A DNA stretch of 59,806 bases from Actinomycetes bacterium (lineage in GTDB: Bacteria > Actinomycetota > Acidimicrobiia > Acidimicrobiales > GCA-2861595), in assembly GCA_023264975.1 (NCBI GenBank), contig JAHFUS010000015.1:1-59806 (forward strand). Direction: 5' to 3'. Of the stretch, positions 458-28,135 are shown piece by piece (position 1 is the stretch's first letter; every line of letters begins with the position of its first letter). The position numbers and the translations under genes were made by a program. Below the pieces are notes generated by a model. It was given only the letters and a program-made list of their open reading frames with translations. It was not told where the DNA came from and did no database searches.

Positions 458-607
458 TCACCGGCGGATCTTGGTCTTGATGAAGCTCGTGATCGTGTCG
501 GTGGGTGTCTGTACCTTGTGGACCTTGCGCACGTGATCGGCGACCTTGCGCATCAACTCTTCATCAGTACCGGCTTTGCCTTGCCAACGGCAGGCATGGT
601 CGGCATC
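458..607 (-). pseudogene. DUF1059-like small protein, apparent frameshift at start
   Basis: The frame ending at the TGA (458-460) reads ADHACRWQGKAGTDEELM, then a V-A-D-H-V-R-K-V-H segment and a basic C-terminus. This is the C-x-W ... A-x-H-x-x-x-x-H pattern of the small DUF1059 family (about 50 residues). The frame has a stop just upstream and no usable start. An ATG with a good ribosome site (AGGTGAAGGG) sits at 605-607 but in another frame; inserting one G after it would give M-A-D-H-A-C-R-W exactly. So the gene is broken by one base, either truly or by sequencing error. It is the last member of the leftward operon below the two small membrane genes. Confidence 0.45.
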
Positions 608-691
608 CCTTCACCTGAACTCCGGCAACGTTCCTCCTTCTTGGTGTAAGCGCTCCTACCAGTCTGGCGGACCGCTGCTGGTACGGGCGAA

Positions 692-982
692 CTAGGCGCC
701 GAGGGCGCGGGCGCGACCGGGGGCGCGCAGTGCCCGGCGCGAGGGGCCGTCTCCGAGGAGGCCCGACAGGGCGCCCTCGATGGCCTGCGTCTGCCGGTGG
801 ATGTCGCCCACCACGGCGCCGATCGGTTCGCACTGGGAGGCGATGGACCGCACACCGATGAGGACGGTGCCGACAGTGAAGCTCACCTTGTTGAGGGTGT
901 AGGCGATGATGATGAGGTACAGGGCCACAGCCCCGACCCCGAGGAACACCCCGATGAGGGTGACAACCGTTGCAAGACCCAT
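692..982 (-). CDS. Small membrane protein with one N-terminal span
   Basis: 96 residues. One hydrophobic segment lies at about residues 3-32 (LATVVTLIGVFLGVGAVALY and onward), followed by a polar helical part with Q/E heptad-like spacing (IHRQTQAIEGAL) and an Arg/Ala-rich tail. The start ATG at 982 has an upstream GGAAAGG site. It lies 48 nt after the other small membrane gene (1031-1279), and the two are almost certainly co-transcribed. The architecture resembles the membrane protein at 15270-15557 inside the hydrogenase operon. No enzymatic motif is visible; a membrane anchor or sensor helper is only a guess. Confidence 0.7.
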   Translation of the reverse strand: MGLATVVTLIGVFLGVGAVALYLIIIAYTLNKVSFTVGTVLIGVRSIASQCEPIGAVVGDIHRQTQAIEGALSGLLGDGPSRRALRAPGRARALGA

Positions 983-1030: not shown

Positions 1031-1279
1031 TCACAGAATCCGCTGCAGCGCACCGACGTAGCGGCCGGCTGCGCCGTGGGCCGTACCCGCCAGCTCACGC
1101 GTGCGGACGAGCTTAGGCACCGAGTCGAGCGCGGCGGTGATGCCCACGCCGTGTTCGAGGATGTCGTTGGCGTAGGCGTTGATCTCCATGATCTGGCGCA
1201 GCAGCCGGTTGAGCAGCAGCAGCACCACCGGCACCACTACGAAGAGCAGGACCAAGTTCCCGAGCCACCACAGAGCCAC
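1031..1279 (-). CDS. Small membrane protein, one N-terminal span
   Basis: 82 residues with a GTG start at 1279. A single very hydrophobic helix (WLGNLVLLFVVVPVVLLLLN, residues about 5-24) is followed by an amphipathic, probably coiled cytosolic part (MEINAYANDILEHGVG). It is the first gene of the leftward small operon. I do not recognise a named family. The conserved-looking pair of single-span proteins, with the similar one at 15270, suggests a set that assembles at the membrane. A TACAAT box at 1327-1332 could be its -10. Confidence 0.7.
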   Translation of the reverse strand: MALWWLGNLVLLFVVVPVVLLLLNRLLRQIMEINAYANDILEHGVGITAALDSVPKLVRTRELAGTAHGAAGRYVGALQRIL

Positions 1280-3543: not shown

Positions 3544-4314
3544 TCAGGCCCGCGTGGGACCCTTCTTCTTCCAGGTCGCCTCGTACTGGGCCAGGGCGTC
3601 GAACAGCTCGGTGAAGTTGGCCTTGCTCAGGGTCTGGACCTCGAGGGCGGCCGCCCTGGCTTCGAGGTCGGGCTGGATGTAGGCGGAGTAGAGGAGAATG
3701 GGCCCGTCGTAGCCGGACTTGCGCATGCTGGTGGCTACTTCGATGCCGGACATGCCGGGCATGCGCTGGTCGAGCAGCACGATGCCGTCCGACACGTTGG
3801 ACCAGCGGTCGAGCGCGGTCTCACCGTCGGGCGCCTCCTCCACCAGCCAGCCCCGCTGCTCGAGAAGAACCCACAACGTGTGGCGCATGTCGTCGTCGTC
3901 CTCGACGACCAGGACCCGGTTGCGCTGCCGCTTGGTGGACTTGCGCTCCTGGTGCACCAGGCCGCGGTAGCGGTCGAGGAGGCCGCCGATGGCCCGGCGC
4001 TGGTTGACCAGCGCCGGCGCCGTCTCCTTGAGCTGCGTCTCGCCCTCGGGGGTGATGCCGTAGACACGCCGGGCCGGACCACGCGCCGGCGTTCCCCAGT
4101 GCGAGGTGACGAGGCCCTCGTCCTCCATGGAGCGCAGCGCCCGGTAGAGGCCCCCGAAATCGGGCACGTCGAAGCCGAGCTCGGCCAGGCGGCTCACAAG
4201 CTCGTAGCCGTGGCTCTCCCGCTCCTTCAGCAGGAGGAGGATGGCAGGGCGCAACAGGCTCCGGGACCGGAGGTCGTCGGTGCCTCCGCCCTCGCTGTTC
4301 TTCGGTCTCGTCAC
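3544..4314 (-). CDS. PadR winged-helix and response-receiver fusion
   Basis: 256 residues. The start chosen is GTG at 4314 because AAGGAG lies 5 nt before it; an ATG at 4401 is in frame but has no such site. Residues about 15-110 are a PadR-type winged helix (LLRPAILLLLKERESHGYEL, GGLYRALRSMEDEGLV). Residues about 130-250 are a receiver domain with the acidic pocket VVEDDDD, phosphoacceptor Asp in LLDQRMPGMSG, Ser in LYSAY and the conserved Lys in LSKAN, so it is probably phosphorylatable. A PadR domain N-terminal to a receiver is unusual. The soluble kinase at 1434-3092 is the obvious candidate partner. Confidence 0.85.
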   Translation of the reverse strand: MTRPKNSEGGGTDDLRSRSLLRPAILLLLKERESHGYELVSRLAELGFDVPDFGGLYRALRSMEDEGLVTSHWGTPARGPARRVYGITPEGETQLKETAPALVNQRRAIGGLLDRYRGLVHQERKSTKRQRNRVLVVEDDDDMRHTLWVLLEQRGWLVEEAPDGETALDRWSNVSDGIVLLDQRMPGMSGIEVATSMRKSGYDGPILLYSAYIQPDLEARAAALEVQTLSKANFTELFDALAQYEATWKKKGPTRA

Positions 4315-4416
4315 CCGGACTCCTTCCCGCTTGCCCCCCGAGCACGGCTCTGGCGACCCGCCGACGCCATCGACTGGATGAACGCTAGAGACATTATGCA
4401 CCTAGTCATCCGGGCC

Positions 4417-4538: not shown

Positions 4539-5579
4539 CTACACCGCTTCTATGGCTCGGAGGGAGTCGATGGCCACCTTCTGGACCATCCCCGTGCTGG
4601 ACTCGAGCTCGAGGCGGGCGCTGCGGTCGACGCCTCTGGCGACGCCTCGGGTCTCGCCCTTGGGAAGGAGGCGGAGCTTGACGCGGCGGCCCAGCATGCC
4701 GCAGCGCCCGTCGTAGGCGGCGGCGACGCCGGCCGAGCCCTCGGCCAGGTCGGCGCTGTTGCGGTCGAGGGCACCGAGAATCCCTTCGAGCACCGCCTCG
4801 CGTCCGTCGGAGCCGAGCCCGAGGGTGTCGAGGTTGACGCGGATGGTGGCGACGGCGCTGCGCACCTTGCCCGGACCGAGCTGGATCTCGACCTTGACCG
4901 CCGCAACCTCGTCGCCGCTGTCGGCGTGGACGACCAGGTCGGGCCACCACGTGGCCAACTCGCGATCCGACGCCGCCGCCGCTCCCTCGGCCGCAGCCAC
5001 GCCGGCGAGCAGCCAGATGGCGTCGGCCTCCTCCACCGACAGCGGCGGCCGCAGCACGATGGCGCACGACAGGGTGGACTCGGGCGGCGTGGTCCACAAC
5101 CGGCCGAGACGACCGAGCGGGCTCACCTCGCGTTCGACCACGACCGTGGCCCCATCGGGGGCATGTTCCTGGCGCGCCCACGCCAGCGCCAGGGCCGCGC
5201 CGGACACGCCCATGCGGTAGTGCCGGACGAGGTGACCGAAGCGCTCTGTCGCCTCGCCCGGACCGAGACCGCCGGTAGGAGAGGACTGGGGAGCCGGGCC
5301 GGTCGGGCTCCGCACGCGCCTGGCGTCACCTGCGTCGGCGCCGACGGGCTGGTCGGGATCTGGGCCGGCCTCCCCCACGAGCTCGGCCATGGCCGCCTCA
5401 CGCCCGGCTCGGTCGTCGTCCGGCTCCTCCTCGGCGACATCGGTCCCGGCGCCGCTCGGGCCCGACTGCTCGGGCGTCTCGTCGGGAGGCGGGGTGAAGT
5501 CGGACCCGCTCGGGCCCGACTGCTCGGGCGTCTCGTCGGGAGGCGGGGTGAAGTCGGACCCGCCCTGTCCGCCGCTCAT
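4539..5579 (-). CDS. Biotin-ligase-fold protein, catalytic Lys lost
   Basis: 346 residues, ATGA overlap with the gene before it. The N-terminal 110 residues are Pro/Glu/Gly-rich and contain an exact 18-residue tandem repeat (SDFTPPPDETPEQSGPSG twice). Residues about 115-346 follow the BirA/LplA plan: SPLGRLGRLWTTPPES at the GRGRxGRxW site, IVLRPPLS, then TWWPDLV where active ligases have KWPND, and a C-terminal RCGMLGRRV...G-V-D-R-S-A-R-L segment like the BirA cap. The ligase Lys is replaced by Trp and the Gly-rich loop is degenerate, so biotin transfer is unlikely. Last gene of the hydrogenase structural operon; a scaffold or binding role in hydrogenase assembly is an inference. Confidence 0.7.
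   Translation of the reverse strand: MSGGQGGSDFTPPPDETPEQSGPSGSDFTPPPDETPEQSGPSGAGTDVAEEEPDDDRAGREAAMAELVGEAGPDPDQPVGADAGDARRVRSPTGPAPQSSPTGGLGPGEATERFGHLVRHYRMGVSGAALALAWARQEHAPDGATVVVEREVSPLGRLGRLWTTPPESTLSCAIVLRPPLSVEEADAIWLLAGVAAAEGAAAASDRELATWWPDLVVHADSGDEVAAVKVEIQLGPGKVRSAVATIRVNLDTLGLGSDGREAVLEGILGALDRNSADLAEGSAGVAAAYDGRCGMLGRRVKLRLLPKGETRGVARGVDRSARLELESSTGMVQKVAIDSLRAIEAV
5452..5559. repeat. 54-bp exact tandem duplication
   Basis: Two consecutive 54-bp units (5452-5505 and 5506-5559) encode the duplicated 18-residue Pro/Glu-rich segment at the N-terminus of the biotin-ligase-fold protein. They are identical as read, so the duplication is recent or maintained. Confidence 0.9.
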
Positions 5580-6067
5580 GGTGTGACCCCAGGGGGCCGG
5601 GGGACGAGTCGCTCCACCAGCCAGGCGCCGTCGATGGCGGCCAGCTCCACCGAGCCGACCGGGAGTCCCACCGGCCCGAGCAACGGCGGGATCGGCGCCG
5701 TCAGCACGACCCGGACCTGTCCGGGTGCGTGCTCGGCGTCGGCCGCGTATTCCAGGTCGTCGAGGTTGTTGCCGGCGAGGTCGGCCCGGAGTCCGTCGAC
5801 CAGCTCACTGAGGAACTCCTCGCTCTCGCCCGCGCCGGCGGTGCCATCGCGCAGCCTGGCGGCCAGGGCCTCGTCCATGCCGTTCTTCACGCCGATGCGC
5901 AACACGGTCTTTCGGCCCTCCGGGCCCAGCAGCGCCCAGACGGTGCGATGCTCGCCCCAGGCCACAGCCTCGACGAAGGCCCTCGCTGCCGCCGTGGCCT
6001 CCGCTGTTCCCGGCCCCGCCTCGGGCGCACGCGGCACGACGCTGTCGCCGGGCTCCCGATCCGTCAC
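5576..6067 (-). CDS. Unknown protein of the hydrogenase operon
   Basis: 163 residues. Overlaps the following gene by ATGA and the preceding TPR gene by 4 nt. The segment RAFVEAVAWGEHRTVWALLGPEGRKTV looks like the start of an NTF2/SnoaL-like cone fold (helices, then sheets such as VRVVLTAPIP and VELAAIDGAWLVERLVP), but no catalytic residues stand out. No signal peptide and no span. Tight coupling suggests it works with the TPR and ligase-fold proteins in hydrogenase assembly. Confidence 0.7.
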   Translation of the reverse strand: MTDREPGDSVVPRAPEAGPGTAEATAAARAFVEAVAWGEHRTVWALLGPEGRKTVLRIGVKNGMDEALAARLRDGTAGAGESEEFLSELVDGLRADLAGNNLDDLEYAADAEHAPGQVRVVLTAPIPPLLGPVGLPVGSVELAAIDGAWLVERLVPRPPGVTP

Positions 6068-7455
6068 GGTCGCTCCCAGCCGATCGAGTAGAGGAAGTCG
6101 CGTGTCATGATCCGCTGCGGCCCCTGGAGTGCGCCGCCGATGGCCGCGTCGAGCAGGCGGTCGGCCGCCTCCTGCCCCTCTGGGCCGACCGAGCGGTGGG
6201 CCTCGAAGCGGGAGCGCAGGGCCACGTCGAGGGTCTCGGGCGGAAGCTCCATGAGTACCTTCAGTTCCGCCTCCATTAGCAGCTGGGCGCGGGCGCCGAC
6301 CATCAGGGAAGCCAGCGCCAGCTCCTTGAGGAGCGAGCGCCGACGGGCATCTGGCATGGCCAGCAGCCGGATGACCCGTTCCCGGACCAGCGCCATCCGC
6401 TCCTCCTCGGACGTGGAGGCGGCCAGGATGGCGAACTGCTCGGTGCGCGACGTACCGGGGGAATCCGCCGCCAGCAGCCCCTCGACGCGGCTGAGGCTGG
6501 CGAAGGCCTGCTTCCAGGCGTCGGCGTGCAGCCGGGTGTCCAGCAGGGCGATGGCGTCCTCGAAGTTGGCCAGGGCCCGCCGCAGGTTCTGCAGCCGTGC
6601 CTTTCCGCCCCCGCCGTCCTGCTCGGCGGCCACGTCGGCCTGGGCGGCGTACGCCAACCCGAGGTTGTGCTTCGCCAGCGCGTGCTGGTACGGGAAGCCG
6701 CTGCGGGTGAACACCGTGAGCGACTCCCGGAACGCGGCGGCCGCCTCGTCCAGCAGCTGGGGCCGCTCGTCGGGACGACGGGCGGCCAGCGCACTGCAGG
6801 CGGACCCGAGGCTGTGGTGGACGAGCGCGTAGTGGTACGGCGCCTCGTCGGCATCGAGGTCTCCCAGGGCCTCCTCGAAGTCGGCCAGGGCCAGCTCCAG
6901 CGCCTCTTCGGTCCCGGCCGACGCATGCGCCTGTCCCCGGTTGACCACGGTGGCGACGAAGCCGCGCCGGCCGTCGGCCGTGGCGGTGTCGAACAGAGCC
7001 GCCGCCTCGTCGAAGGCCGTCACCGCCTCGTCGATCTCACCCAGCTCGCTGCGCGCCAGGCCCACGTTGTTCAGGGAGGCGGCCCGCTCGTCGTGGCGCT
7101 CGTGGCCGTCGAAAAGGTCGGCTGCCTTCTGGAACAGGTCCGCCGCCTTGCGCCGGTCGCCCAGGGCCCGGTGGCACGCTCCGGCCGCGTTGAGGACCCG
7201 GGCGTGCTCGACCGGGTCGAAGCGTGGGTCGAAGATAGCGGCCGCCACGTCGAAGCAGGCCAGCCCCTTGCGCAGGAGCTCGCCCCGGTTGCCGACCGGG
7301 CACTCGGCGTACGCCAGCCCCAGGCGGTACGCCACCGTGGCGTGCTCGTACGGGCGCATGGCGCGCGGGGTCGCCTTGAGCTGCGCCTCGAGGCCCTCGA
7401 TGGCGCTCGTGGGGTCGTTCGCCTGGGTCGGGCTGACCGCTTCGCTCGACGACAT
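6064..7455 (-). CDS. TPR-repeat protein of the hydrogenase operon
   Basis: 463 residues. The start ATG at 7455 overlaps the stop of the maturation protease gene (TGATG). Several tetratricopeptide-like helix pairs run from about residue 30 to 330 (for example LNAAGACHRALGDRRKAADL, LNNVGLARSELGEIDEAVTA, KHNLGLAYAAQADVAAEQ). The C-terminal 120 residues form a separate helical region (LVRERVIRLLAMPDARRRSL). TPR proteins are scaffolds for protein-protein contact. I recall TPR genes in other actinobacterial-type hydrogenase clusters, so a role as assembly chaperone or subunit adaptor is plausible but unproven. Confidence 0.85.
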   Translation of the reverse strand: MSSSEAVSPTQANDPTSAIEGLEAQLKATPRAMRPYEHATVAYRLGLAYAECPVGNRGELLRKGLACFDVAAAIFDPRFDPVEHARVLNAAGACHRALGDRRKAADLFQKAADLFDGHERHDERAASLNNVGLARSELGEIDEAVTAFDEAAALFDTATADGRRGFVATVVNRGQAHASAGTEEALELALADFEEALGDLDADEAPYHYALVHHSLGSACSALAARRPDERPQLLDEAAAAFRESLTVFTRSGFPYQHALAKHNLGLAYAAQADVAAEQDGGGGKARLQNLRRALANFEDAIALLDTRLHADAWKQAFASLSRVEGLLAADSPGTSRTEQFAILAASTSEEERMALVRERVIRLLAMPDARRRSLLKELALASLMVGARAQLLMEAELKVLMELPPETLDVALRSRFEAHRSVGPEGQEAADRLLDAAIGGALQGPQRIMTRDFLYSIGWERP

Positions 7456-7958
7456 CAGGCGGCTGAGGGGTCGAGGGCGTTCAGCTCTTCGACGTGGCGG
7501 AGAATCTCGGCGATGGCGATCTCGACCGCCGCCGTCACCGGCTCGGACATCTCGACACCGATGGCCTCCACGTCCAACGGCTGGCACCCCACCATGAGCA
7601 GCCGCTCGGGCAGCACGCCGAGGGCCCGGGCCAGCATGAACACCCGCTCCGGGGTGGCCAGGTGGGCGTCGGACAGCAGGTCGCTACGCTCACCCCACGA
7701 CAGCGCCTTCACGTCGATCACGTCAGGCTCGATGAGCATGACCGTGCCAGGCGGCCGGCCCCGGTCGACGGCGTCGGCCACGATCAGGGCGTCCCAACCG
7801 TCCTGCAGTTCCTGCACCAGGGCAATGCCCCCGATGCCGGTCTCCACGACCCGCACCCCGTCTGGCAGCTCCATCGCCTCCAGCCGGTGCGCGACCTCCA
7901 CCCCGAACGCATCATCCGCCTTCAGCACGTTCCCCACGCCCGCGATCAGTATCCGCAT
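7455..7958 (-). CDS. Hydrogenase maturation endopeptidase (HyaD/HybD family)
   Basis: 167 residues, start ATG at 7958 (MRILIAGVGNVLKADDAFGV). The family trims the C-terminal peptide of the large subunit after nickel insertion. The three nickel-sensing positions of HybD (Glu16, Asp62, His93) correspond here to Asp16 (in ADDAFG), Asp62 (in ADAVDRG) and His99 (in DAHLATP). The C-terminal MVGCQPLDVEAIGVEMSEPV segment is the usual family tail. The large subunit at 9753 has a 20-residue tail after its final His for it to cut. The 94-nt gap before this gene could hold an internal promoter. Confidence 0.92.
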   Translation of the reverse strand: MRILIAGVGNVLKADDAFGVEVAHRLEAMELPDGVRVVETGIGGIALVQELQDGWDALIVADAVDRGRPPGTVMLIEPDVIDVKALSWGERSDLLSDAHLATPERVFMLARALGVLPERLLMVGCQPLDVEAIGVEMSEPVTAAVEIAIAEILRHVEELNALDPSAA

Positions 7959-8587: not shown

Positions 8588-9223
8588 CTACCGGCCCTCG
8601 TGCCCGCGAATCTGCAGCAGCGGCGCCTGGGGCTCAGGGATGGCGCTGGCGCCGGCCGGGGCGGTGACGCACTCCAGGTCGACCGTCTCCGGGTTGACCT
8701 CGGCTGCCGGCTCGACCTCCTCCAGCCGGCGGAAGCTCGGCCAGTGAGTCTTGAGGGCCGCCTCCAGCCCGTAGGTGAGGGTGGCAGAGGAGCTGGCGCA
8801 CCCGTCGCACGTGCCGTGCATCTTCACGCTCACCACGCCGTCCACGACCGACACGATCTCGATGGACCCGCCGTGCGACTCGACCAGCGGGCTGATCTCG
8901 GCCATGGCCGCGTCGACCGCCTTGCGCATCTCCTCTTCGGCCTCGGTGTCGAGGCCCTCCCCCAGGCCGTAGGCGTTCAGCATCGTGCCCACGATCTCGT
9001 CCCGGGCGAGGGACTCCAGGAAGATCTCCCCTCGCCACGCCCGGGTCATGTCGATCATGCGCCCGAGACCGTCGCGGTGGACCGCGTCGACCCAGTCGAG
9101 CAGCTCCAACACCCGCTCCGAGACCTTCGAGTCGGGATGGTTGGCCAGGCCGTCTGCCAGGTCGGCGATGTGCTCCCACGCCCCCCTGTACGAAAGCTGG
9201 TCCTCGTCGGGCCCGATACTCAT
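8588..9223 (-). CDS. NifU-like Fe-S scaffold protein
   Basis: 211 residues, ATGA overlap with the gene before it. The N-terminal 90 residues are a helical domain without recognised motifs. Residues about 95-170 are the NifU C-terminal domain: helices, ISPLVESHGGSIEIVSV, then HGTCDGCASSSATL with the C-x2-C pair at residues 139 and 142 that binds a transferable Fe-S cluster. A low-complexity tail follows. NifU-like genes are a regular partner of actinobacterial-type (group 1h-like) hydrogenases. It may load the three clusters of the small subunit or carry electrons. Confidence 0.9.
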   Translation of the reverse strand: MSIGPDEDQLSYRGAWEHIADLADGLANHPDSKVSERVLELLDWVDAVHRDGLGRMIDMTRAWRGEIFLESLARDEIVGTMLNAYGLGEGLDTEAEEEMRKAVDAAMAEISPLVESHGGSIEIVSVVDGVVSVKMHGTCDGCASSSATLTYGLEAALKTHWPSFRRLEEVEPAAEVNPETVDLECVTAPAGASAIPEPQAPLLQIRGHEGR

Positions 9224-9753
9224 GCGTTCGTCACCTCCTCGGCGATGGCGCCGATCTCCTCACGGACCATGGCCAGTACCTGCTCCACCGTCGCCTCCAC
9301 CTCATTGGAGAACCCGAGCCCGAACGACCTGTCGCCTGGTTCCACCTCGATCACAACTGTGTCCTCGGGCAATGCCTTCCAGTACCGGATGATGGCGAGG
9401 GTGTGGTCCAAGTCGATGATACCGCCGACCGCCTCACCAAGTCGGTCGATGACCTCCTGGTCGGGCGGCGGGGTGAGGTCGAGCTTGTACCGGCGGATGG
9501 TGCCGGGCGGGTCGATGTCGCGCGGCATGGCGCCGACGAACACGACCTTGGCCGGCCGCAGGTCCTGCAGCAGGTGCAGCACCCGGTGCGCCGAGTAGGA
9601 CAGGTCCTCGATCACCACGCCCTCGGGCCAGTCGAGCCCTTCGACGCGCTTGATCCACTGGGTACCGAAGTCGAGGTCACGAAGCCACGGCAGACCAACG
9701 CCGCCCACCAGTATCTGGCGGGCGGCGTCGGTACCGTCGGAAGACGGAGGCAC
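9220..9753 (-). CDS. Second hydrogenase-protease-like protein, degenerate site
   Basis: 177 residues. The GTG start at 9753 shares bases with the TAG of the large-subunit gene (TAGTG). The chain follows the HybD/HycI fold: ILVGGVGLPWLRDLDFG (Gly-rich strand-loop, Asp28), VVIEDLSYSAHRVLHLLQDL, then VVFVGAMPRDIDPPGTIRRY where true proteases have VDAVD-x-G, an Asp-His pair (DLDHTLAI, His117), and the family-typical VIEVEPGDRSFGLGFSNEVE. The Asp of the central strand is replaced (VGAM), so one nickel ligand is missing. It may be a non-cutting chaperone for the large subunit; activity with altered ligands is not excluded. Confidence 0.75.
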   Translation of the reverse strand: MPPSSDGTDAARQILVGGVGLPWLRDLDFGTQWIKRVEGLDWPEGVVIEDLSYSAHRVLHLLQDLRPAKVVFVGAMPRDIDPPGTIRRYKLDLTPPPDQEVIDRLGEAVGGIIDLDHTLAIIRYWKALPEDTVVIEVEPGDRSFGLGFSNEVEATVEQVLAMVREEIGAIAEEVTNA

Positions 9754-11633
9754 TACTCCAGCGTGCAGCCGCAGGAGTTCACCTCTCGGGTGATGATGCC
9801 CCTGCCGGTGTCCATGTGGGTGGTGCAGGGCATACAGGGGTCGAAGCTGCGGATGGCCCGCAAGACGTCGAGGCCCTTGACCTGCTCGTCGGGCACGCTC
9901 TCGAGCAGCGGCGTGTCGATGATGGCCTGCTCGTAGGGGCCGAGGCCACCGAACGGGTCGCGGGGCGACGCGTTGAGCGTGGACGGCGTGGTGATCTGGT
10001 AGTTGAGCAGCTTGCCCTTGTCCATGTGGAGGTGGTGCGCCAGCCAGCCGCGCCCGGCCTCCCAGAAGCCCATGGCGATCCGCTCGTCCTTGGGCACCTT
10101 GTAGGGGGTGTGGACCTTGGTCTCGCCCCGGCGCCAGTACTCGAGGGCCTTGAGCATGCAGTTCATGCCGATGGCGGCGGTGAAGGCCATGGAGTAGGCC
10201 CTGGCCCGGTTGCGCTCGAGGGCGTTGATGGTCCGGGGGACCTTCCAGAACAGCTCCTCCTCGGGGAGGCCGTGGCGGGGCATGACCATGCGCAGGCCGT
10301 CGCCGGTGGACTCGAAGAAGGGGTTGTCGACGGTGTTGTTGGCCAGGGCGGTGGCCCACAGCTGGCCGTAGGCGCCGGTCTCGATGGTGCGCCGGTCCCA
10401 GCGGGGGGCGGTGTCCCAGGTGTACTTGCCACGGAAGTCGGTGGCCTGCGGCTTGGGGATCGTGGTCTTGTTCCACGGGTGGTACGGCGAGATGGGGTTG
10501 CCCAGGGGGTCCGTACGGAACCGGGGCGGGCCGGCGGTGGTCCAGTCCTCGTAGAAGGAGTGGTCGATGAACTCCTCGAAGCCGATGTTGATGTCGGTGA
10601 TGTTGGTGGTGACCAACTTGCCGTCGAGGATGACCGCCGGCTTCGACCAGCGGGCGTTGCCCCAGGCGTCGATGTTGGCGTAGGTGCCGTCGTAGTACTC
10701 GGAGTTGTCCCAGATGCCGGTCTGGGCGAGGTTCATCTCGCGGGCGCCCACCTGCTCGTAGGCCGGGTTGGCTTCGAGGAAGAAGTCCATCAGGTCGTCC
10801 CAGATGCGGCAGATGACCTTGGCGAAGTCGAAGATCTTGCCGAGCTGGGTGTAGTACTCGTTGAACGACGAGGTGGAGATGGTGGTGGTGACGCCGCCGG
10901 GGGCCAGCGTCGACGGGTGCGGGTACTTGCCGTACATGAGCATGCACATGATGCGGCCGACCCGGGTCCACTCCAGGGCTTCCAGGTAGATCTGGCCCGT
11001 GAGCGGGTTGAGGGCATCCATGATGTCCTTGATGGTGCGGTAGCCGTGGATGTCGCCGTGGGGCGACAGCGTCTTCTCGGCCCGGGTGACCAGCTCGGGG
11101 TTGGTCACCGACACCAGGGCGGTGGAGTAGTCGGGCCCGGCCAGCAGGCCGAGGTGCAGCGGGCGGTCGTAGAACATCTCGCCCACCTCGCCGAGGTTGC
11201 GCACCTCGATGCCGAGGGGGGGCGGGGTGACGCCGAACGCCATGTCGAGGCACTGCGACGAGACGGTGGCATGGACGCCGCCGCACACGCCGCATGCCCG
11301 CGAGCTGATGTCGATGGCGTCACGGGGGTCACGGCCCTGGAGGATGATCTCGTAGCCACGGAAGAGCATGGCCCGGGAGTGGGCCTCGACGGCCACGCGG
11401 TTCTCGAGATCGAGCACGCAGTGGACGGCGAGGGCGCCGGCCACGCGGGTCATCGGGTCGATGTTCCAGTCGCGCAGGCGGGGCGGCGCGGCCAGCTGGG
11501 CGCCGGGGCCTTCCTGGCGCCGTACGTAACCCTTGGGCTTGGCCACCGACACCGCATAGGGGTCGTTGACACCCTCGCGCAGGGTGGCCTTGCCGCTCTG
11601 GTCGAACTCGATGGGCAGATTCTTGAAGCACAT
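9753..11633 (-). CDS. [NiFe] hydrogenase large subunit
   Basis: 626 residues, start ATG at 11633 (MCFKNLPIEFDQ). It oxidises H2 at the NiFe(CN)2CO centre. Ligands seen: RACGVCGGVH (Cys114, Cys117, His121) and DPCMPCTTH (Cys600, Cys603, His606). After His606 comes a 20-residue tail ending SCGCTLE, expected to be removed by the maturation protease. Overall sequence (for example EAHSRAMLFRGYEI, GVTTTISTSSFNEYY) fits the actinobacterial-type group 1h and its near relatives rather than membrane-bound Tat enzymes. It lies 129 nt downstream of the small subunit gene. Confidence 0.96.
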   Translation of the reverse strand: MCFKNLPIEFDQSGKATLREGVNDPYAVSVAKPKGYVRRQEGPGAQLAAPPRLRDWNIDPMTRVAGALAVHCVLDLENRVAVEAHSRAMLFRGYEIILQGRDPRDAIDISSRACGVCGGVHATVSSQCLDMAFGVTPPPLGIEVRNLGEVGEMFYDRPLHLGLLAGPDYSTALVSVTNPELVTRAEKTLSPHGDIHGYRTIKDIMDALNPLTGQIYLEALEWTRVGRIMCMLMYGKYPHPSTLAPGGVTTTISTSSFNEYYTQLGKIFDFAKVICRIWDDLMDFFLEANPAYEQVGAREMNLAQTGIWDNSEYYDGTYANIDAWGNARWSKPAVILDGKLVTTNITDINIGFEEFIDHSFYEDWTTAGPPRFRTDPLGNPISPYHPWNKTTIPKPQATDFRGKYTWDTAPRWDRRTIETGAYGQLWATALANNTVDNPFFESTGDGLRMVMPRHGLPEEELFWKVPRTINALERNRARAYSMAFTAAIGMNCMLKALEYWRRGETKVHTPYKVPKDERIAMGFWEAGRGWLAHHLHMDKGKLLNYQITTPSTLNASPRDPFGGLGPYEQAIIDTPLLESVPDEQVKGLDVLRAIRSFDPCMPCTTHMDTGRGIITREVNSCGCTLE

Positions 11634-11762
11634 AGAGCGCTGCTCCCCTTCGTTGCGCCCTCCGGATCGGGAGGACTTCTGGTGTTCTCTGGACCCTGGT
11701 TGCCTGGCACTACGTGGCGGGGAGAGCGACCGGATGGCCGCCCTCCCCGTGTTCAACTACTG

Positions 11763-13085
11763 CTAGCGGCCGCCCTCGTGTGAGTGCTGCACCGACGAGT
11801 ACGCCTTGTGGAAGGCCTTGAGCGCACCCTTGGGCGGGGTCTTGGACCTTGCCCAACCGCTGGAGATGGCGCCGTCGGCGGTCCACCTGGGCGTCATGTT
11901 CTTGTCGACCCGCGTCATGTTGCGCATACGGCGGATGAACCCGCCGGTGATCTTGCTGGTGGTGCTGGACAGCATCGAGCCGGGCGACTTCTCGAAGATG
12001 GGCGAGAACTTGTCCGGGAAGCCGGGCATGGTGCACCCGATGCAGATGCCGCCCATCTGCATGCACCCGCCATGGCCGTCGACGATGCCGCGCTCGGCGA
12101 TGTTGCACTGGACCACAGGGCCCCAGCAACCGAGCTCGACGAGACACTCCTTGTCGCCGTACTCCTCGGCGAACACGCCCTCTTCGTAGTAGCCGGCACG
12201 GGGGCAGTGGCGGTGCACCGTCTCGCCGAACAACCAGGCCGGGCGGCCCAGCTCGTCGAACTCGGGCAGCGGGGCCAGGCCGTTGAGGAACAGCAGGGCG
12301 GCGGCCGCCGTCTCCAGGTAGTTGTCGCCGATGGGCGAGCAGCCCGGGATGTTGACGATGGGCACGCCGAAGGCGGAGCGGTAGTCGCGGCCCAGGTAGT
12401 CCATCATCCCCATGGAGTTGGTGACGTTGCCCTTGGCCGCCGGGATGCCGCCCCAACTGGCGCAGGTACCGATTGCGATGATGGCGGCGGCGCCGGGCGC
12501 CAGGCGGTCGAGCCACTCGAGGCTGGTGATCTGGCGGCCGGTGGCCGGGTCCTCGCCGAGGCCCATCCAGTAGCCGCCGGTCTGGGCGGCGATGGACTCG
12601 TCCATGATCGACCCCTCCCACGTGATGACGTAGGGGGCGTCGAGTTCGCCGCGCTCGGCCATGAAGAGGTTGTGCGTCCACTCGGGGCCCACCTCGGTGG
12701 ACACCACGGTGTGGATCAGCTCCACCCGGGGCAGGCCCGGGATGATGCCGGCCAGCAGGTGCTCCACCCGGGGATGGGTGCCACCCGCCACGGCTACGGT
12801 GCAGCCGTCGCAGGAACCGCCCACCATCCAGATCAGGTAGATCTTCTTGAGGGGGCCGAGGGCCAGCACGTCGGGCGGCTCTTCGAGAGCCCGGCTGCGC
12901 ACGCCGATGGGCGCCATGGGATCGAGGGGGTCGTACCCGTCGATGAGGCCGATGTCACGCCGGCCCCGCTTGAAGCTGTCCATCTCCGAGCCACGGGACG
13001 TGGGCCCAGCGGTCGTCGTGGAGACGGCGCTGCCCGTATCAGGCCCTGCTTCGCGCCTCCGGCGACTGCGACCTTCGGTTGCCAT
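11763..13085 (-). CDS. [NiFe] hydrogenase small subunit, group 1h-like
   Basis: 440 residues, start ATG at 13085. It carries electrons from the active site through three Fe-S clusters. Ligands: SCDGC (Cys92, Cys95), GTCASWGG and NIPGCSP for the proximal cluster; HRHCPRAG, ECLVELGC and VVQC for the distal one; GGCMQMGGICIGCTMPGFPD for the medial one. The first 60 residues are polar and basic (SRRRR) with no hydrophobic stretch, so there is no Tat signal and the enzyme should face the cytoplasm. In characterised group 1h enzymes the first motif is CDGD (Asp ligand); here it is CDGC. An internal Met at residue 35 is an alternative start. Confidence 0.95.
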   Translation of the reverse strand: MATEGRSRRRREAGPDTGSAVSTTTAGPTSRGSEMDSFKRGRRDIGLIDGYDPLDPMAPIGVRSRALEEPPDVLALGPLKKIYLIWMVGGSCDGCTVAVAGGTHPRVEHLLAGIIPGLPRVELIHTVVSTEVGPEWTHNLFMAERGELDAPYVITWEGSIMDESIAAQTGGYWMGLGEDPATGRQITSLEWLDRLAPGAAAIIAIGTCASWGGIPAAKGNVTNSMGMMDYLGRDYRSAFGVPIVNIPGCSPIGDNYLETAAAALLFLNGLAPLPEFDELGRPAWLFGETVHRHCPRAGYYEEGVFAEEYGDKECLVELGCWGPVVQCNIAERGIVDGHGGCMQMGGICIGCTMPGFPDKFSPIFEKSPGSMLSSTTSKITGGFIRRMRNMTRVDKNMTPRWTADGAISSGWARSKTPPKGALKAFHKAYSSVQHSHEGGR

Positions 13086-13273: not shown

Positions 13274-13687
13274 GTGGACGAACTGCTGCACCCGCCCAAG
13301 TCGCAGGCACTGCGGGAGATGTTCTGGCGGAGCGAGATCCTCCAGGTCATCTATTGGCTCCGGGGCGAGCAATTCGGCCTTGGCGAGTTCCGCGACCAGG
13401 CCGACGCCAAGATGCTGGAGCGCTTCCTCGGGGTCGACGCGGAGATCGGGGTCCTGTACCTCGACCTGCTGGTCGACCGCGGCGACCTGGAGCGCGACGA
13501 CGACCGCTACCGCCTCTCGGAAGAGGGGGTCCGGGAAGGCGCTCTCGAGTTCGCGGCCAGCTGGAGCGACCTCACCAGGCCCACCCACGGCGAATGCAGC
13601 GCCGACTGCTGGTGCCACAACTCGCCCGACGAGGCAGCGGCGTGCCAGCAGGAACGGGCCGCCGCCCACGCGGACCACGACCATTAG
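13274..13687 (+). CDS. Winged-helix protein with C-terminal Cys cluster
   Basis: 137 residues, GTG start at 13274 with GGAAGGA upstream, transcribed divergently from the hydrogenase structural genes. Residues about 15-90 look like a winged helix (SEILQVIYWLRGE, VLYLDLLVDRGDLERDDDRY, then RLSEEGVREGALEF). The C-terminus holds Cys108, Cys112, Cys114 and Cys124 (C-x3-C-x-C-x9-C) and ends in a His-rich tail (HADHDH). This could bind Fe-S, zinc or nickel, making it a candidate O2-, redox- or nickel-responsive regulator of the island. No named family recognised. Confidence 0.75.
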   Translation: MDELLHPPKSQALREMFWRSEILQVIYWLRGEQFGLGEFRDQADAKMLERFLGVDAEIGVLYLDLLVDRGDLERDDDRYRLSEEGVREGALEFAASWSDLTRPTHGECSADCWCHNSPDEAAACQQERAAAHADHDH

Positions 13688-13703: not shown

Positions 13704-14114
13704 ATGGCCACCGAAGGCAAGTCCCGCAAGTCCCTCGAGGAGCCCCAGGGCGGCCTCCCCCGCAACTACCTGCGGGCCAGCCTGCTGCTCCTCATCGGCG
13801 AGGCGCCGGCCCACGGCTACGACCTCCTCGACCAGATCGCCCAGCTCGGGCTGCGTTCCGTCGACCCGGGCGGGCTGTACCGCACGCTGCGGGTAATGGA
13901 GGACGACGGCCTCGTCGCCTCGTCCTGGCAGCACTCCAGCGCCGGCCCCGCCCGCCGCACCTACCGCCTCACGGCCGACGGTGTCGACTGGCTGCACGCC
14001 TGGGCCGGTGCCCTGCGCGAGAGCCACCGCTACCTGTCCGCCTATCTGGGCCGCTACGACGACATCGCCACCACGGTCAGCGCCACCCTCGACGAGGTGA
14101 CCATCCTCCCGTGA
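13704..14114 (+). CDS. PadR-family transcriptional regulator
   Basis: 136 residues, start ATG at 13704, 16 nt after the preceding gene. Winged-helix motif of PadR: YLRASLLLLIGEAPAHGYDL, then DPGGLYRTLRVMEDDGLV and ARRTYRLTADGVDWL, followed by a C-terminal helix for dimerisation. It has the same DNA-binding plan as the PadR-receiver fusion at 3544-4314 but no receiver. Its first residues, MATEGKSRKS, nearly match those of the hydrogenase small subunit (MATEGRSRRR). Likely controls the divergent hydrogenase promoters. Confidence 0.88.
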   Translation: MATEGKSRKSLEEPQGGLPRNYLRASLLLLIGEAPAHGYDLLDQIAQLGLRSVDPGGLYRTLRVMEDDGLVASSWQHSSAGPARRTYRLTADGVDWLHAWAGALRESHRYLSAYLGRYDDIATTVSATLDEVTILP

Positions 14115-15269: not shown

Positions 15270-15557
15270 ATGAGCGGGTGGTTCATCGCGTCCCTCCTCG
15301 GGGGCCTGTTCGCCCTGCTGGTCCTCGGCCTGCTGGTCGTGGTCTCGAAGGCAGTTATGCGCACGGCCCACAACGCATCCGAGCTGATGGTGGCGTTGGA
15401 GCAGGTCCAGGCCCAGACCAAGGTGCTGGCCGACCTCGAGGCCCAGAGCGGTCATACGGCCCGGGTGGCGACCGACACCGCCACCGCGCTGGCGGAGATC
15501 CGCCTCTACGAGCGGGTGTCGGAGCAGGAAGGCAACGGACGCGATGGCAGTCGTTGA
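15270..15557 (+). CDS. Small membrane protein with coiled tail
   Basis: 95 residues. One strong hydrophobic helix (FIASLLGGLFALLVLGLLVV, residues about 5-25), then a predicted coiled region (ALEQVQAQTKVLADLEAQ) and a charged end. It sits between the CooC-like ATPase and hypC. The layout is the same as in the two small membrane proteins at 692-1279. It might tether the cytoplasmic hydrogenase or its partner to the membrane, but nothing in the sequence proves this. Confidence 0.7.
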   Translation: MSGWFIASLLGGLFALLVLGLLVVVSKAVMRTAHNASELMVALEQVQAQTKVLADLEAQSGHTARVATDTATALAEIRLYERVSEQEGNGRDGSR

Positions 15558-15701: not shown

Positions 15702-15980
15702 ATGTGTCTAGGAATTCCCGGCCAGGTGGTCGAGATCATCGACCCCGCCCAGCACAAGGCCATCGCCGAGGTCGACGGCGTTCGCCGTGAGATCAACGTC
15801 GGCCTAGTCATGGGCGACGTGGGCGGCCTAAACGTGGGCGACTGGGTGCTGATCCACGTCGGCTTCGCCATGTCGAAGATCGACGAGGAGGAGGCAGCCC
15901 GCAATCTGGCCTGGCTCAAGGAACTGGGGTCCGTCTACGACGACGAGATCGACCAGTTCAAAGAGTCCTCGCCGCTCTGA
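15702..15980 (+). CDS. hypC: Hydrogenase maturation chaperone HypC
   Basis: 92 residues, start ATG at 15702 with a strong GGAGG site. It begins MCLGIPGQVVEI with the essential Cys2, and contains GVRREINVGLV and GDWVLIHVGFAMSKIDEEEA, the standard HypC/HybG pattern. It carries the Fe(CN)2CO unit with HypD and hands it to the large subunit. The C-terminus is slightly extended and acidic. Confidence 0.96.
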   Translation: MCLGIPGQVVEIIDPAQHKAIAEVDGVRREINVGLVMGDVGGLNVGDWVLIHVGFAMSKIDEEEAARNLAWLKELGSVYDDEIDQFKESSPL

Positions 15981-22494: not shown

Positions 22495-25338
22495 TCACCT
22501 GGGCACCGTGGCCAGGCCCACCACGGCGGCGTTGAGGCGGCTGCCGCCGAGGGAGCCCAGGAAGGGGGCGCCGAGGGCGTAGACCGAGCCGTCGGAGCCC
22601 ACTGTCCAGTAGCCGGTGGTGCCGGGGGCGGCCTCGATGCCCACGATCGGCGCGGCCAGGCGGGTGGCGGCGGTGGAGCCCGAGAACACGGCGTCGCCGA
22701 AGGCGAAGATGCCCCCGTCGGCACCCACCAGGTGGTAGCCCCGGCCCGAGGCGGTGGCGCGCATGCCCACGACGGGGGCCTTGAGCGACAGCGAGCCGGT
22801 GGAGCCGTAGAAGCGGGCGTCGCCGAAGGCGAACACGCCGCCGTCGGAGGCCACCAGGCGGTAGCCCCGGCCGCCGGGGGTGGCGGAGATGCCCACGATA
22901 GGGCGGTTGAGGCGAGTGGCGCCGAGGGATCCGAGGAAGCGGGCGTCACCGAAGGCGAACACGCCACCGTCGGACGCCGCCAGCCAGTAGCCGTTGCCGG
23001 TGGGTGTGGGGGCCATGCCCACGATGGGGGCGTTGAGGCGGCCGCCGCCCATCGAGCCCCGGTAGGTGGCGTCGCCGAAGGAGAACACCCCGCCGTCGCG
23101 GGCGACCAGCCAGTAGCCGGCCCCGCTCGGGCTGGCGGCCAGGCCCACCAACGGGGCGGTGAGGCGCAGCGCCCCGGCCGAGCCGAGGAAGGGGGCGTCG
23201 CCCAGGGCGAACACCCCGCCGTCGGCCGAGGCCACCCAGTAGCCCCGCCCGGCGGCCGGCGCCGGCTTCTCCAGCACCCACAGCCCCGAGTTCATGTCGG
23301 AGATCACGATGTGGCGAGGGGTGTAGTCCACCCCCACCACGTAGGCCTTGGCCGGCACGGTGCCGGTGGGGTCGGCCGTGTCGGGGGGCACGAAGGAGCC
23401 GACCTCGACGGGCACGCCGCCCTTGAGGTCGAGCACCCGCAGCCCGTCGGAGTTCCACGCCCCATACACCCGTGTGCCGTCCACCACGGTGTGGTGGACC
23501 GAGTAGATGCCGCGGTGGTCGGGCGGGGGGAACACCCTCGCCCCCGGGCTGCGGTAGACAGAGACCTCCGAGGAGGCGGCCGGATTGGACACGTCGAGCA
23601 CCCGCAGGCCCCCCCACTCGCCGGGCATGTCCACCAGGGCGCCGGTGACGGGCTGGCCTCCGGTGCACTTCCCGTCGGCGCCGATGGCCGGGCACATGGT
23701 GGCCCTGATGGCGTCCCCCGCCGGCCCCTTGACCTGGAACCCGGGAATGTTGAGCGGGGCGATCTCGGCGCCGGAGAACTCCGTGGTCTTCACCGGCCAG
23801 CCGGGACCCGGAAAGCCTGCGATGGCCTCCGTATGGCCGCCGGTCCCGCCGGCGGTACGCAGCATGTTGGCGATGGCCCCGTTGGTCTGGGACCACTTGA
23901 CCCGGCTGGCGAAGCTGCAGCCGGCCGAGGTGGGGCTGAGGGTGGGTTGGGTCACCGGGTTGGGGGCGTTGTCGGTGAAGGCGATCTTTCCGGCCGGGTC
24001 GGAGAGGTAGGGATCGGCAGGGTTGAGGGTGCCGTCGGCGTTGCGGCGCGGGGGACAGCCGCGGCCGACGTAGGCCAGCTCGCCCGCGATTTGGCGCCCG
24101 GGCCGGCTGGAGATCTGAGCGTCGAACTCCGGGTCGACGGTGGTGAACAGGTCGGAGCAGCCGAGCTTGACGCCGGCCAGTTGGGGCGGCGAGTCGACCC
24201 GGAACGCCGATGTGGTCCCCCACCAGTCCTCGTCGGCCAGCAGTGCCAGGCGGCGGCCGCCGACCGCGGCCTCGGTGGCGTAGGCGCCGTTGCCCTCCAC
24301 GTCCCAGTCGGCCGGGTACTTCCACTGGCCCTTGATCGTGGGGTTGAGCAGGTCACGGGCGTCGAGGACGAACAGGCCGCCGTCCGCATAGGGGACGAAC
24401 ACCTCGGTGCCGTCGGCGCTGAACTCCACCGAGCGGCTGCCCGCCCGCGGGTAACAGCCGTTCGGCGACAATCTGGCCGGGACGTCGGTGAGCGGCGGCC
24501 ACACCCCGAGCCGCACGGGCTTGGAGGGATCGGTGACGTCGACCAGGCGCACGTCACTGGACGGCGTGACGTTGTCGGCGCCGTCCACCCTGCTGGCCAC
24601 CATCATGATGCGTCCGTCGCGGATCCGCTTGAGGTCGACCGAGTAGACGTCCTTGGCGCAGTTGGTCTCGAATCCCCCCGGCGGCGGCCCGCACGGGGGC
24701 GCCTCTGGGTCGAAGTTCTCCGAATCGGCCACATAGCGGCCTACCAGGCGTGGCCGGTCGGGATCCGAGACGTCGTAGAGGCCAACCCCACGGTGGGCGA
24801 AGCTGCCGTTGGCCGACGTGCCGATGGCGGCGGCGGCCTCGTTGGGCTTGCAGGTGGCGAACGCGAGGGCGGCCAGGTCGCCGGTGAATGACGGGGTGCT
24901 CACGTGGAGCGCGTCGACCTCCCGCACTAGCTGGCCGTCGGGCACTGGGATCTTGCTGGCCACCCTCGGCCGGGCCGGTTCGGAGATATCCACCACGTTC
25001 ACGGGCGGGCTGGCGCACGGAGGAAAGGTGTTGAGGCTCACCATCTTCGCGTTGGCCGGCAGCGAGGTGCCCATGGGAAGGTAGCCGGCGGCGACCACGG
25101 CTGTGGCGCCCACCACGGCGACGTCGCCGTTGAGCCCCTGGCCGCCAAGGTTGGTGTAGCCCACCACCTTGAGGCCCTGGGCCACGCCGCCCGCCGGGAT
25201 GGGTGAGCCCGTGGTCTGGGCCTCCCCCGGCCGGACCGGCGCGCTGAGGAGGCCTGCCACCAGGGCGAGAGGGACGACGAGGCGTAGCCCGGTTCCTATC
25301 CGCCCCCCGTGCCGCCGTCGCGCAGAACCCACATGCAT
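22495..25338 (-). CDS. Secreted double-propeller protein
   Basis: 947 residues from ATG 25338. Signal peptide with hydrophobic core LVVPLALVAGLLSAP and likely cut near GEA-Q. Residues about 40-700 are LVIVD-type propeller repeats (VNVVDISEPARPRVASKI, GLYDVSDPDRPRLVGRY, VRLVDVTDPSKPVRLG, LRVLDVSNPAASSEVSVY) with several Cys. Residues about 700-947 are six 42-residue repeats of the type GYWLAASDGGVFAFGDARF. No enzyme motif seen; probably an extracellular binding or adhesion protein. Its neighbour at 25440-27740, 101 nt upstream, carries the same six-repeat module, so the two are likely co-expressed. Confidence 0.85.
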   Translation of the reverse strand: MHVGSARRRHGGRIGTGLRLVVPLALVAGLLSAPVRPGEAQTTGSPIPAGGVAQGLKVVGYTNLGGQGLNGDVAVVGATAVVAAGYLPMGTSLPANAKMVSLNTFPPCASPPVNVVDISEPARPRVASKIPVPDGQLVREVDALHVSTPSFTGDLAALAFATCKPNEAAAAIGTSANGSFAHRGVGLYDVSDPDRPRLVGRYVADSENFDPEAPPCGPPPGGFETNCAKDVYSVDLKRIRDGRIMMVASRVDGADNVTPSSDVRLVDVTDPSKPVRLGVWPPLTDVPARLSPNGCYPRAGSRSVEFSADGTEVFVPYADGGLFVLDARDLLNPTIKGQWKYPADWDVEGNGAYATEAAVGGRRLALLADEDWWGTTSAFRVDSPPQLAGVKLGCSDLFTTVDPEFDAQISSRPGRQIAGELAYVGRGCPPRRNADGTLNPADPYLSDPAGKIAFTDNAPNPVTQPTLSPTSAGCSFASRVKWSQTNGAIANMLRTAGGTGGHTEAIAGFPGPGWPVKTTEFSGAEIAPLNIPGFQVKGPAGDAIRATMCPAIGADGKCTGGQPVTGALVDMPGEWGGLRVLDVSNPAASSEVSVYRSPGARVFPPPDHRGIYSVHHTVVDGTRVYGAWNSDGLRVLDLKGGVPVEVGSFVPPDTADPTGTVPAKAYVVGVDYTPRHIVISDMNSGLWVLEKPAPAAGRGYWVASADGGVFALGDAPFLGSAGALRLTAPLVGLAASPSGAGYWLVARDGGVFSFGDATYRGSMGGGRLNAPIVGMAPTPTGNGYWLAASDGGVFAFGDARFLGSLGATRLNRPIVGISATPGGRGYRLVASDGGVFAFGDARFYGSTGSLSLKAPVVGMRATASGRGYHLVGADGGIFAFGDAVFSGSTAATRLAAPIVGIEAAPGTTGYWTVGSDGSVYALGAPFLGSLGGSRLNAAVVGLATVPR
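22498..23244. repeat. Six 126-bp repeats coding for GYWL-type blades
   Basis: The C-terminal region of the gene at 22495-25338 has six diverged copies of a 126-bp unit. The last copy lacks one codon after the YALG motif. The same count and the same shortened last copy are found at 25443-26186. Confidence 0.85.
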
Positions 25339-25439
25339 CGCGCAACCCCCAGGTCGTTGCTCACCGTCTCGGGCCGACTCTACTTCCGCCACTAGCACCT
25401 CCGCGTGGGCCGTCCGCCGGGCCGGGTCGAAGGTCCCGC

Positions 25440-27740: not shown

Positions 27741-28135
27741 CGATCTCTCCCGCTCCTGAGCGCGACCGTTGTGTCTCCGCATCCCGCCTAGCTCGTCGTG
27801 CCCACGGCGGTGACCGGGCCACCGGCTGGCAGCAAGGCCGAGACATAAGCAGCCGGCCGCCAGCCTGTCAAGGGTTGGCATCGCCACCGTCCGACGGGCT
27901 GCGCGATCAATGGATCCCGTCGCGGGCATTCCTCGCGCCCAACGTGGTGGACCGACCGCGGCATGCTAAGTGCGTTTCCCATCTAGTCAGCGAGAGTCTC
28001 ACTGCCGACCGGTCGAAAGCCTTGTTTCCCGAAGTGCGAGCGGTCATACTTCCGTCGTTGGTGGAAGCGTCGGCTCACCGGGCCGCGTCGTCTGCCGACC
28101 AGGGTGCGCCTGACAACGAGCGGAAGGGGACAGCG
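27741..28135. other. Divergent promoter region
   Basis: 395 bp between two divergent exported-protein genes; no gene seen. It holds the plus-strand promoter candidate at 28022-28050. The leftward promoter must also lie here but I cannot point to it. Confidence 0.6.
28022..28050 (+). promoter_or_regulatory. Candidate promoter for surface protein gene
   Basis: TTGTTT (28022-28027), 17-nt spacer, CATACT (28045-28050): a fair sigma70-like pair about 85 nt upstream of the ATG at 28136. Confidence 0.4.

What the first reader, a model, noticed from the sequence alone, without database searches (positions are those of the whole stretch)
12801..12812. Hydrogenase small subunit has CDGC, not the CDGD of characterised group 1h enzymes
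The actinobacterial-type hydrogenase of Ralstonia eutropha and related high-affinity group 1h enzymes coordinate the proximal [4Fe-4S] cluster with three Cys and one Asp (CDGD). The enzyme here is very like them elsewhere (EGSIMDE, LGCWGPVVQC, GGICIGCTMPGFPDKF) but has Cys95 in place of that Asp. It may represent a separate branch (1f, 1l or new) with a different redox potential, O2 response or H2 affinity.
Basis: partly seen in the sequence, partly recalled or inferred. Interest (0 to 1): 0.75.

Follow-up and report, generated by a model that had tools for sequence, protein, structure and literature searches.

The report
Four-cysteine hydrogenase of group 1m type
This actinobacterium carries a hydrogen-consuming enzyme whose first iron-sulfur cluster is probably held by four ordinary cysteines; comparison with relatives shows that this is the normal state of its branch (groups 1l and 1m), and that the aspartate of the better-known group 1h enzymes is the exception.

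Summary
In detail: minus strand 12812-12801 reads TGC GAC GGC TGC, CDGC. Cys to Asp would need two base changes and close relatives share the motif, so it is not a sequencing error. It is not an oddity of one enzyme either. Of 120 small subunits, all 15 CDGD rows plus one CDGE form the 1h clade; all 1l-type and Actinobacteriota S-L-adjacent enzymes, with archaeal relatives, are CDGC, apart from three CEGC paralogues. The window enzyme sits in an Acidimicrobiia clade (100/100) outside 1h and outside 1l. Its gene cluster has every accessory gene published for group 1m: HybD, NifU-like, CooC-type ATPase, TPR, BirA-like, DUF1059 and single-TM proteins. So it is a group 1m-type hydrogenase with an inferred standard four-Cys proximal [4Fe-4S] cluster, without the extra cysteines of a [4Fe-3S] cluster. 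Whether published "1m" covers this clade, a second Actinobacteriota clade with much the same toolkit, or both, is open (one joint clade is rejected, AU p=0.012). O2 response, redox potential and H2 affinity are untested.

The parts
11763..12983 (-). [NiFe]-hydrogenase small subunit, 406 aa (alternative start ATG 13085)
   Evidence: Pfam PF14720 and PF01058; 5aa5_A best in sequence and fold
12801..12812 (-). CDGC: Cys58 and Cys61, inferred first and second proximal-cluster ligands
   Evidence: aligned to CDGD of HofK
12462..12464 (-). Cys174 (GTCASWGG), inferred third proximal ligand
   Evidence: Cys in 120/120 aligned small subunits
12339..12341 (-). Cys215 (IPGCSP), inferred fourth proximal ligand
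   Evidence: Cys in 119/120 aligned small subunits
9753..11633 (-). [NiFe]-hydrogenase large subunit, likely start ATG 11633 (MCFKNLP), C-terminal CxC tail; the ORF opens at 11756
   Evidence: Pfam PF00374; alignment; tail survey
9220..9792 (-). hydrogenase maturation protease directly downstream of the large subunit (start uncertain)
   Evidence: NCBIfam TIGR00072 above cut-off
8588..9223 (-). NifU-like Fe-S assembly protein
   Evidence: Pfam PF01106
8053..8559 (-). conserved protein of unknown function (168 aa), colinear across the clade
7455..7958 (-). HybD/HycI-type maturation protease
   Evidence: Pfam PF01750
6064..7455 (-). TPR protein (ORF opens at 7587, likely start 7455)
   Evidence: Pfam TPR_12
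5576..6067 (-). conserved protein of unknown function (163 aa)
   Evidence: conserved in the clade
4539..5579 (-). BirA-like protein (biotin protein ligase C-terminal domain, weak)
   Evidence: Pfam PF02237 just above cut-off; birA_ligase below cut-off
3544..4401 (-). PadR plus response-regulator receiver protein
   Evidence: Pfam; homologues in relatives
1031..1279 (-). 82-aa single-TM protein
   Evidence: hydropathy scan
692..982 (-). 96-aa single-TM protein
   Evidence: hydropathy scan
464..622 (-). DUF1059 domain
   Evidence: PF06348 above cut-off, E 9.5e-10
13274..13687 (+). 137-aa protein, winged-helix-like by eye, conserved in the clade
   Evidence: no Pfam or NCBIfam match
13706..14114 (+). 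PadR regulator (start approximate)
   Evidence: Pfam PF03551
14152..14997 (+). CooC-type (CbiA/MinD-like) P-loop ATPase, proposed Ni-insertion factor
   Evidence: Pfam PF01656; clade-conserved
15270..15557 (+). 95-aa single-TM protein
   Evidence: hydropathy scan
15702..15980 (+). HypC
   Evidence: Pfam PF01455
16026..16751 (+). protein with HypC-like C-terminal domain
   Evidence: Pfam PF01455
16762..17421 (+). SIS-domain protein
   Evidence: Pfam PF13580
17418..18542 (+). HypD (assigned by reading the sequence)
   Evidence: homologues beside other hydrogenase loci, including at the annotated hypD of L134
18614..19705 (+). HypE (AIR synthase related)
   Evidence: Pfam PF00586 and PF02769
19779..22166 (+). 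HypF (assigned by reading the sequence; start approximate)
   Evidence: homologues beside other hydrogenase loci, including at the annotated hypF of L134

Best explanation
The window encodes a two-subunit uptake [NiFe]-hydrogenase of the group 1m type, a branch separate from 1h and related to 1l. CDGC supplies two of four cysteines (Cys58, Cys61, Cys174, Cys215) that hold an ordinary proximal [4Fe-4S] cluster next to the NiFe site. H2 is split at the NiFe site and electrons pass through the proximal, medial and distal clusters to a partner, perhaps through the small single-TM proteins, and on to the respiratory chain. Shown: the motif, the clade, the gene content, and the absence of the extra cysteines of [4Fe-3S] enzymes. 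Inferred: Cys ligation (by homology to HofK, where the aligned residue is the Asp ligand), the electron path, the direction, and H2 oxidation at low concentration. The four-Cys state is most likely ancestral to the 1h/1l/1m assemblage, with Asp gained on the 1h branch.
For: Motif and its conservation. Trees: 1h is one clade of CDGD/CDGE rows (96* small, 100* large, 100/100 concatenated); the window clade is 100/100. Cys at the third and fourth ligand positions in 120/120 and 119/120 rows. No supernumerary Cys compared with HoxK. The full 1m accessory set is in the window against the definition in PMC9561532. Five small single-TM ORFs between S and L in four 1l-type loci, none in the window. 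The fold model matches 5aa5 best.
Against: No biochemistry. Polarity is not proven: outgroups are distant, four of five have Asn at the position (CSGN/CNGN) and only one is a standard CxxC enzyme (L136). The fold model is weak in the Fe-S domain (mean pLDDT 66.8).
Confidence: 0.8

Rival explanations
1. The clade is not group 1m as published but an unnamed lineage of Acidimicrobiia; published 1m is the Pseudonocardia/Thermoleophilia clade (B), which shares the accessory genes.
For: A and B are each 100/100 clades, B groups with 1l-type enzymes (100/99), and A+B as one clade is rejected at p=0.012.
Against: Clade A carries every gene named for 1m, including DUF1059 and single-TM proteins; the published 1m phylogeny could not be read here.
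Confidence: 0.3
2. The enzyme is a group 1h member that lost the Asp by a recent reversion.
For: Best solved relative is HofK; the region of the medial and distal clusters is very alike.
Against: Not inside 1h in any tree; lacks the one-residue 1h insertion before the motif; has the large-subunit CxC tail that the eight 1h large subunits examined lack; genomes G009 and G050 carry both a CDGC and a CDGD enzyme.
Confidence: 0.02
3. CDGC is a sequencing or assembly error for CDGD.
For: None found.
Against: Two base changes would be needed; the same motif stands in independent genomes at 71-98% identity.
Confidence: 0.01

Closest known systems
Group 1m [NiFe]-hydrogenase HhmSL (Ray et al. 2022, PMC9561532)
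   Same: Adjacent S and L genes; HybD, Fe-S assembly protein, CooC, TPR, BirA-like, DUF1059 and small single-TM proteins nearby; Actinobacteriota host
   Different: No ligand comparison was found in the paper's main text ('ligand' and 'coordinat' do not occur); 1m sequences could not be compared; one TM protein is 96 aa against 82-92 published
Group 1l [NiFe]-hydrogenase (Hyl)
   Same: CDGC motif; large-subunit CxC tail; similar single-TM proteins
   Different: 1l has five TM genes between S and L; here S and L are adjacent; separate clade
Group 1h [NiFe]-hydrogenase (HofKG of R. eutropha, 5aa5; Hhy)
   Same: Best solved structure match; very similar region around the medial and distal clusters
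   Different: 1h has CDGD with a one-residue insertion before it, GTCATYGG instead of GTCASWGG, and no CxC tail

Membership tests
group 1m | small and large subunit genes adjacent | tested here: met
   S 11763-12983 and L 9753-11633 on one strand with no gene between
group 1m | HybD peptidase, Fe-S assembly protein, CooC-type ATPase and TPR protein in the cluster | tested here: met
group 1m | BirA homologue in the cluster | tested here: met
   PF02237 at 21.7 bits against a cut-off of 21; weak
group 1m | DUF1059 gene in the cluster | tested here: met
   464-622 (-), over the cut-off
group 1m | two small single-TM proteins of 82-92 aa | tested here: met
   82 and 96 aa at 1279 and 982 (-), plus 95 aa at 15270 (+); two are slightly longer than published
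group 1m | falls in the published 1m clade | not testable with these tools
   1m sequences are in supplements that were not available
group 1l | five TM genes (HylTM1-5) between S and L | tested here: not met
   S and L adjacent in the window; five such ORFs in L063, L058, L060, L069
group 1h | Asp as proximal-cluster ligand (CDGD) | tested here: not met
   CDGC
group 1h | placement in the 1h clade | tested here: not met
O2-tolerant group 1d type | two extra Cys for a [4Fe-3S] proximal cluster | tested here: not met
   alignment with HoxK
group 1f | placement with 1f reference enzymes | not tested
   no 1f reference was included

The most novel reading that the evidence does not exclude
A hydrogenase lineage of Acidimicrobiia, distinct from 1h, 1l and the other 1m-like clade, oxidises trace H2 in air with a plain four-Cys proximal cluster, so its O2 tolerance would rest on neither the 1h Asp nor a [4Fe-3S] cluster.
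Probability: 0.3. Interest if true: 0.55.

Novelty: new member of a known kind. Interest (0 to 1): 0.38.

Why it matters
The Asp ligand has been offered as a reason for the O2 tolerance of group 1h (PMC8498564). If 1l and 1m enzymes oxidise atmospheric H2 with four cysteines, Asp is not required for that, and swapping Cys and Asp between related enzymes becomes a clean test of what the ligand does. The segregation of Cys and Asp by clade also gives a simple sequence marker: CDGC plus a large-subunit CxC tail for 1l/1m, CDGD for 1h.

Tried and rejected
Sequencing error (two changes needed, relatives agree). 1h reversion (trees, insertion, tail). [4Fe-3S] cluster (no extra Cys). NCBIfam gave no model over cut-off for either subunit. 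Two AlphaFold jobs gave only moderate models (62.9 and 66.8), poor in the C-terminal Fe-S domain, so cluster geometry was not judged from them. CoxL: no match over cut-off in this genome. The plasmid search for named relatives gave 1h enzymes and outgroups but no CDGC relative among the rows listed. The papers of Ortiz (2021) and Schafer (2013) are not held. A search of solved structures with the RuBisCO failed on wrong coordinates and was not repeated.

Full report
Observation. The minus strand at 12812-12801 reads TGC GAC GGC TGC, C-D-G-C, in an ORF that is a [NiFe]-hydrogenase small subunit. The nearest solved structure is HofK of R. eutropha (5aa5), which has CDGD there. An error would need two base changes, and close relatives carry the same motif.

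Distribution. In an alignment of 120 small subunits from named genomes, genomes of the same order and plasmid records, the motif is CDGC in 96, CDGD in 15, CEGC in 3 and CDGE in 1; the five outgroup rows have CSGN (2), CNGN (2) or CTGC (1). A few genomes are represented twice under two identifiers. The next two ligand positions are Cys in 120/120 and 119/120. With the motif columns removed, the CDGD rows plus the one CDGE row form a single clade (96*); in the large-subunit tree the CDGD partners are one clade (100*). A concatenated careful tree gives the window clade A, a second Actinobacteriota clade B, 1l-type enzymes and 1h as separate clades at 100/99 or better. Of 296 genomes of the class, 16 had a strong match of any of these types. 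A+B as one clade is rejected (p=0.012); Aeropyrum with 1h is not (p=0.113). These groups were named after the trees were seen, so the p-values are indicative.

Gene content. Ray et al. (PMC9561532) describe group 1m by adjacent S and L and a set of accessory genes. The window has a HybD/HycI protease, a NifU-like protein, a CooC-type ATPase and a TPR protein, a weak BirA-like domain, DUF1059 at 464-622 and single-TM proteins of 82, 96 and 95 aa. The order S-L-protease-NifU-p168-HybD-TPR-p163-BirA is kept across clade A where the contig reaches. Clade B carries most of the same genes in another order, so gene content alone does not separate A from B. In four 1l-type loci five single-TM ORFs lie between S and L, as published for 1l; the window has none.

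Mechanism. By homology, Cys58, Cys61, Cys174 and Cys215 hold a proximal [4Fe-4S] cluster. Neither extra Cys of the [4Fe-3S] enzymes is present. In a different hydrogenase, Cys-to-Asp at the second proximal position (C81D) was tolerated (PMC4070099), so either ligand can work. Asp has been suggested to underlie the O2 tolerance of 1h (PMC8498564); how a four-Cys cluster behaves in air in 1l/1m enzymes is the open question. [quoted passage not shown] The genome also encodes a RuBisCO large subunit (form not determined) and no CoxL match over cut-off.

Polarity. The four-Cys state is the more likely ancestral one: it occurs on every branch of the assemblage except 1h, and an Aeropyrum-like archaeal enzyme combines a 1h-like one-residue insertion with CDGC. 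This is inference; the outgroups are distant and mostly carry Asn.

Further marker. Of the large subunits whose C-terminal tail could be read, 74 that are partners of CDGC or unlabelled relatives carry a CxC tail (some genomes counted twice), three paralogues (L090, L102, L104) end without any tail, and none of the eight CDGD partners carries it.

Verdict. Real, well conserved, and ordinary for its branch: a group 1m-type enzyme, with an unsettled question of which clade that name covers.

Noticed in passing
L111:7959-9188 (G000:C83), L113, L116: Orphan small-subunit paralogues with CEGC and no large subunit found in the fetched stretches, in three genomes of one family; in L111 it lies between recA and miaB.
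   Followed up: partly
L147:10126-12048 (G000:C82): A second large subunit close to the window's own, without a small subunit beside it; it might pair with the orphan CEGC small subunit.
   Followed up: partly
L110:3060-4148: A small subunit with CDGE (Glu at the ligand position) in an Acidobacteria genome, in the 1h clade.
   Followed up: no
L107:9941-11023: Aeropyrum-like small subunit with a 1h-like one-residue insertion but CDGC; its placement differs between trees.
   Followed up: partly
window 9753-11633 and CDGC relatives: Conserved CxC in the C-terminal tail of the large subunit, past the expected protease site, absent from the eight 1h partners examined.
   Followed up: partly
L084, L090, L102: Tandem second S-L pairs in Solirubrobacteraceae/Thermoleophilaceae; the second large subunits of L090 and L102 end right after DPCxxCATH, without a tail to cleave.
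   Followed up: no
window 22495-27929: Long ORFs with many GGVFAFGDA-type repeats on the minus strand next to the hydrogenase cluster.
   Followed up: no
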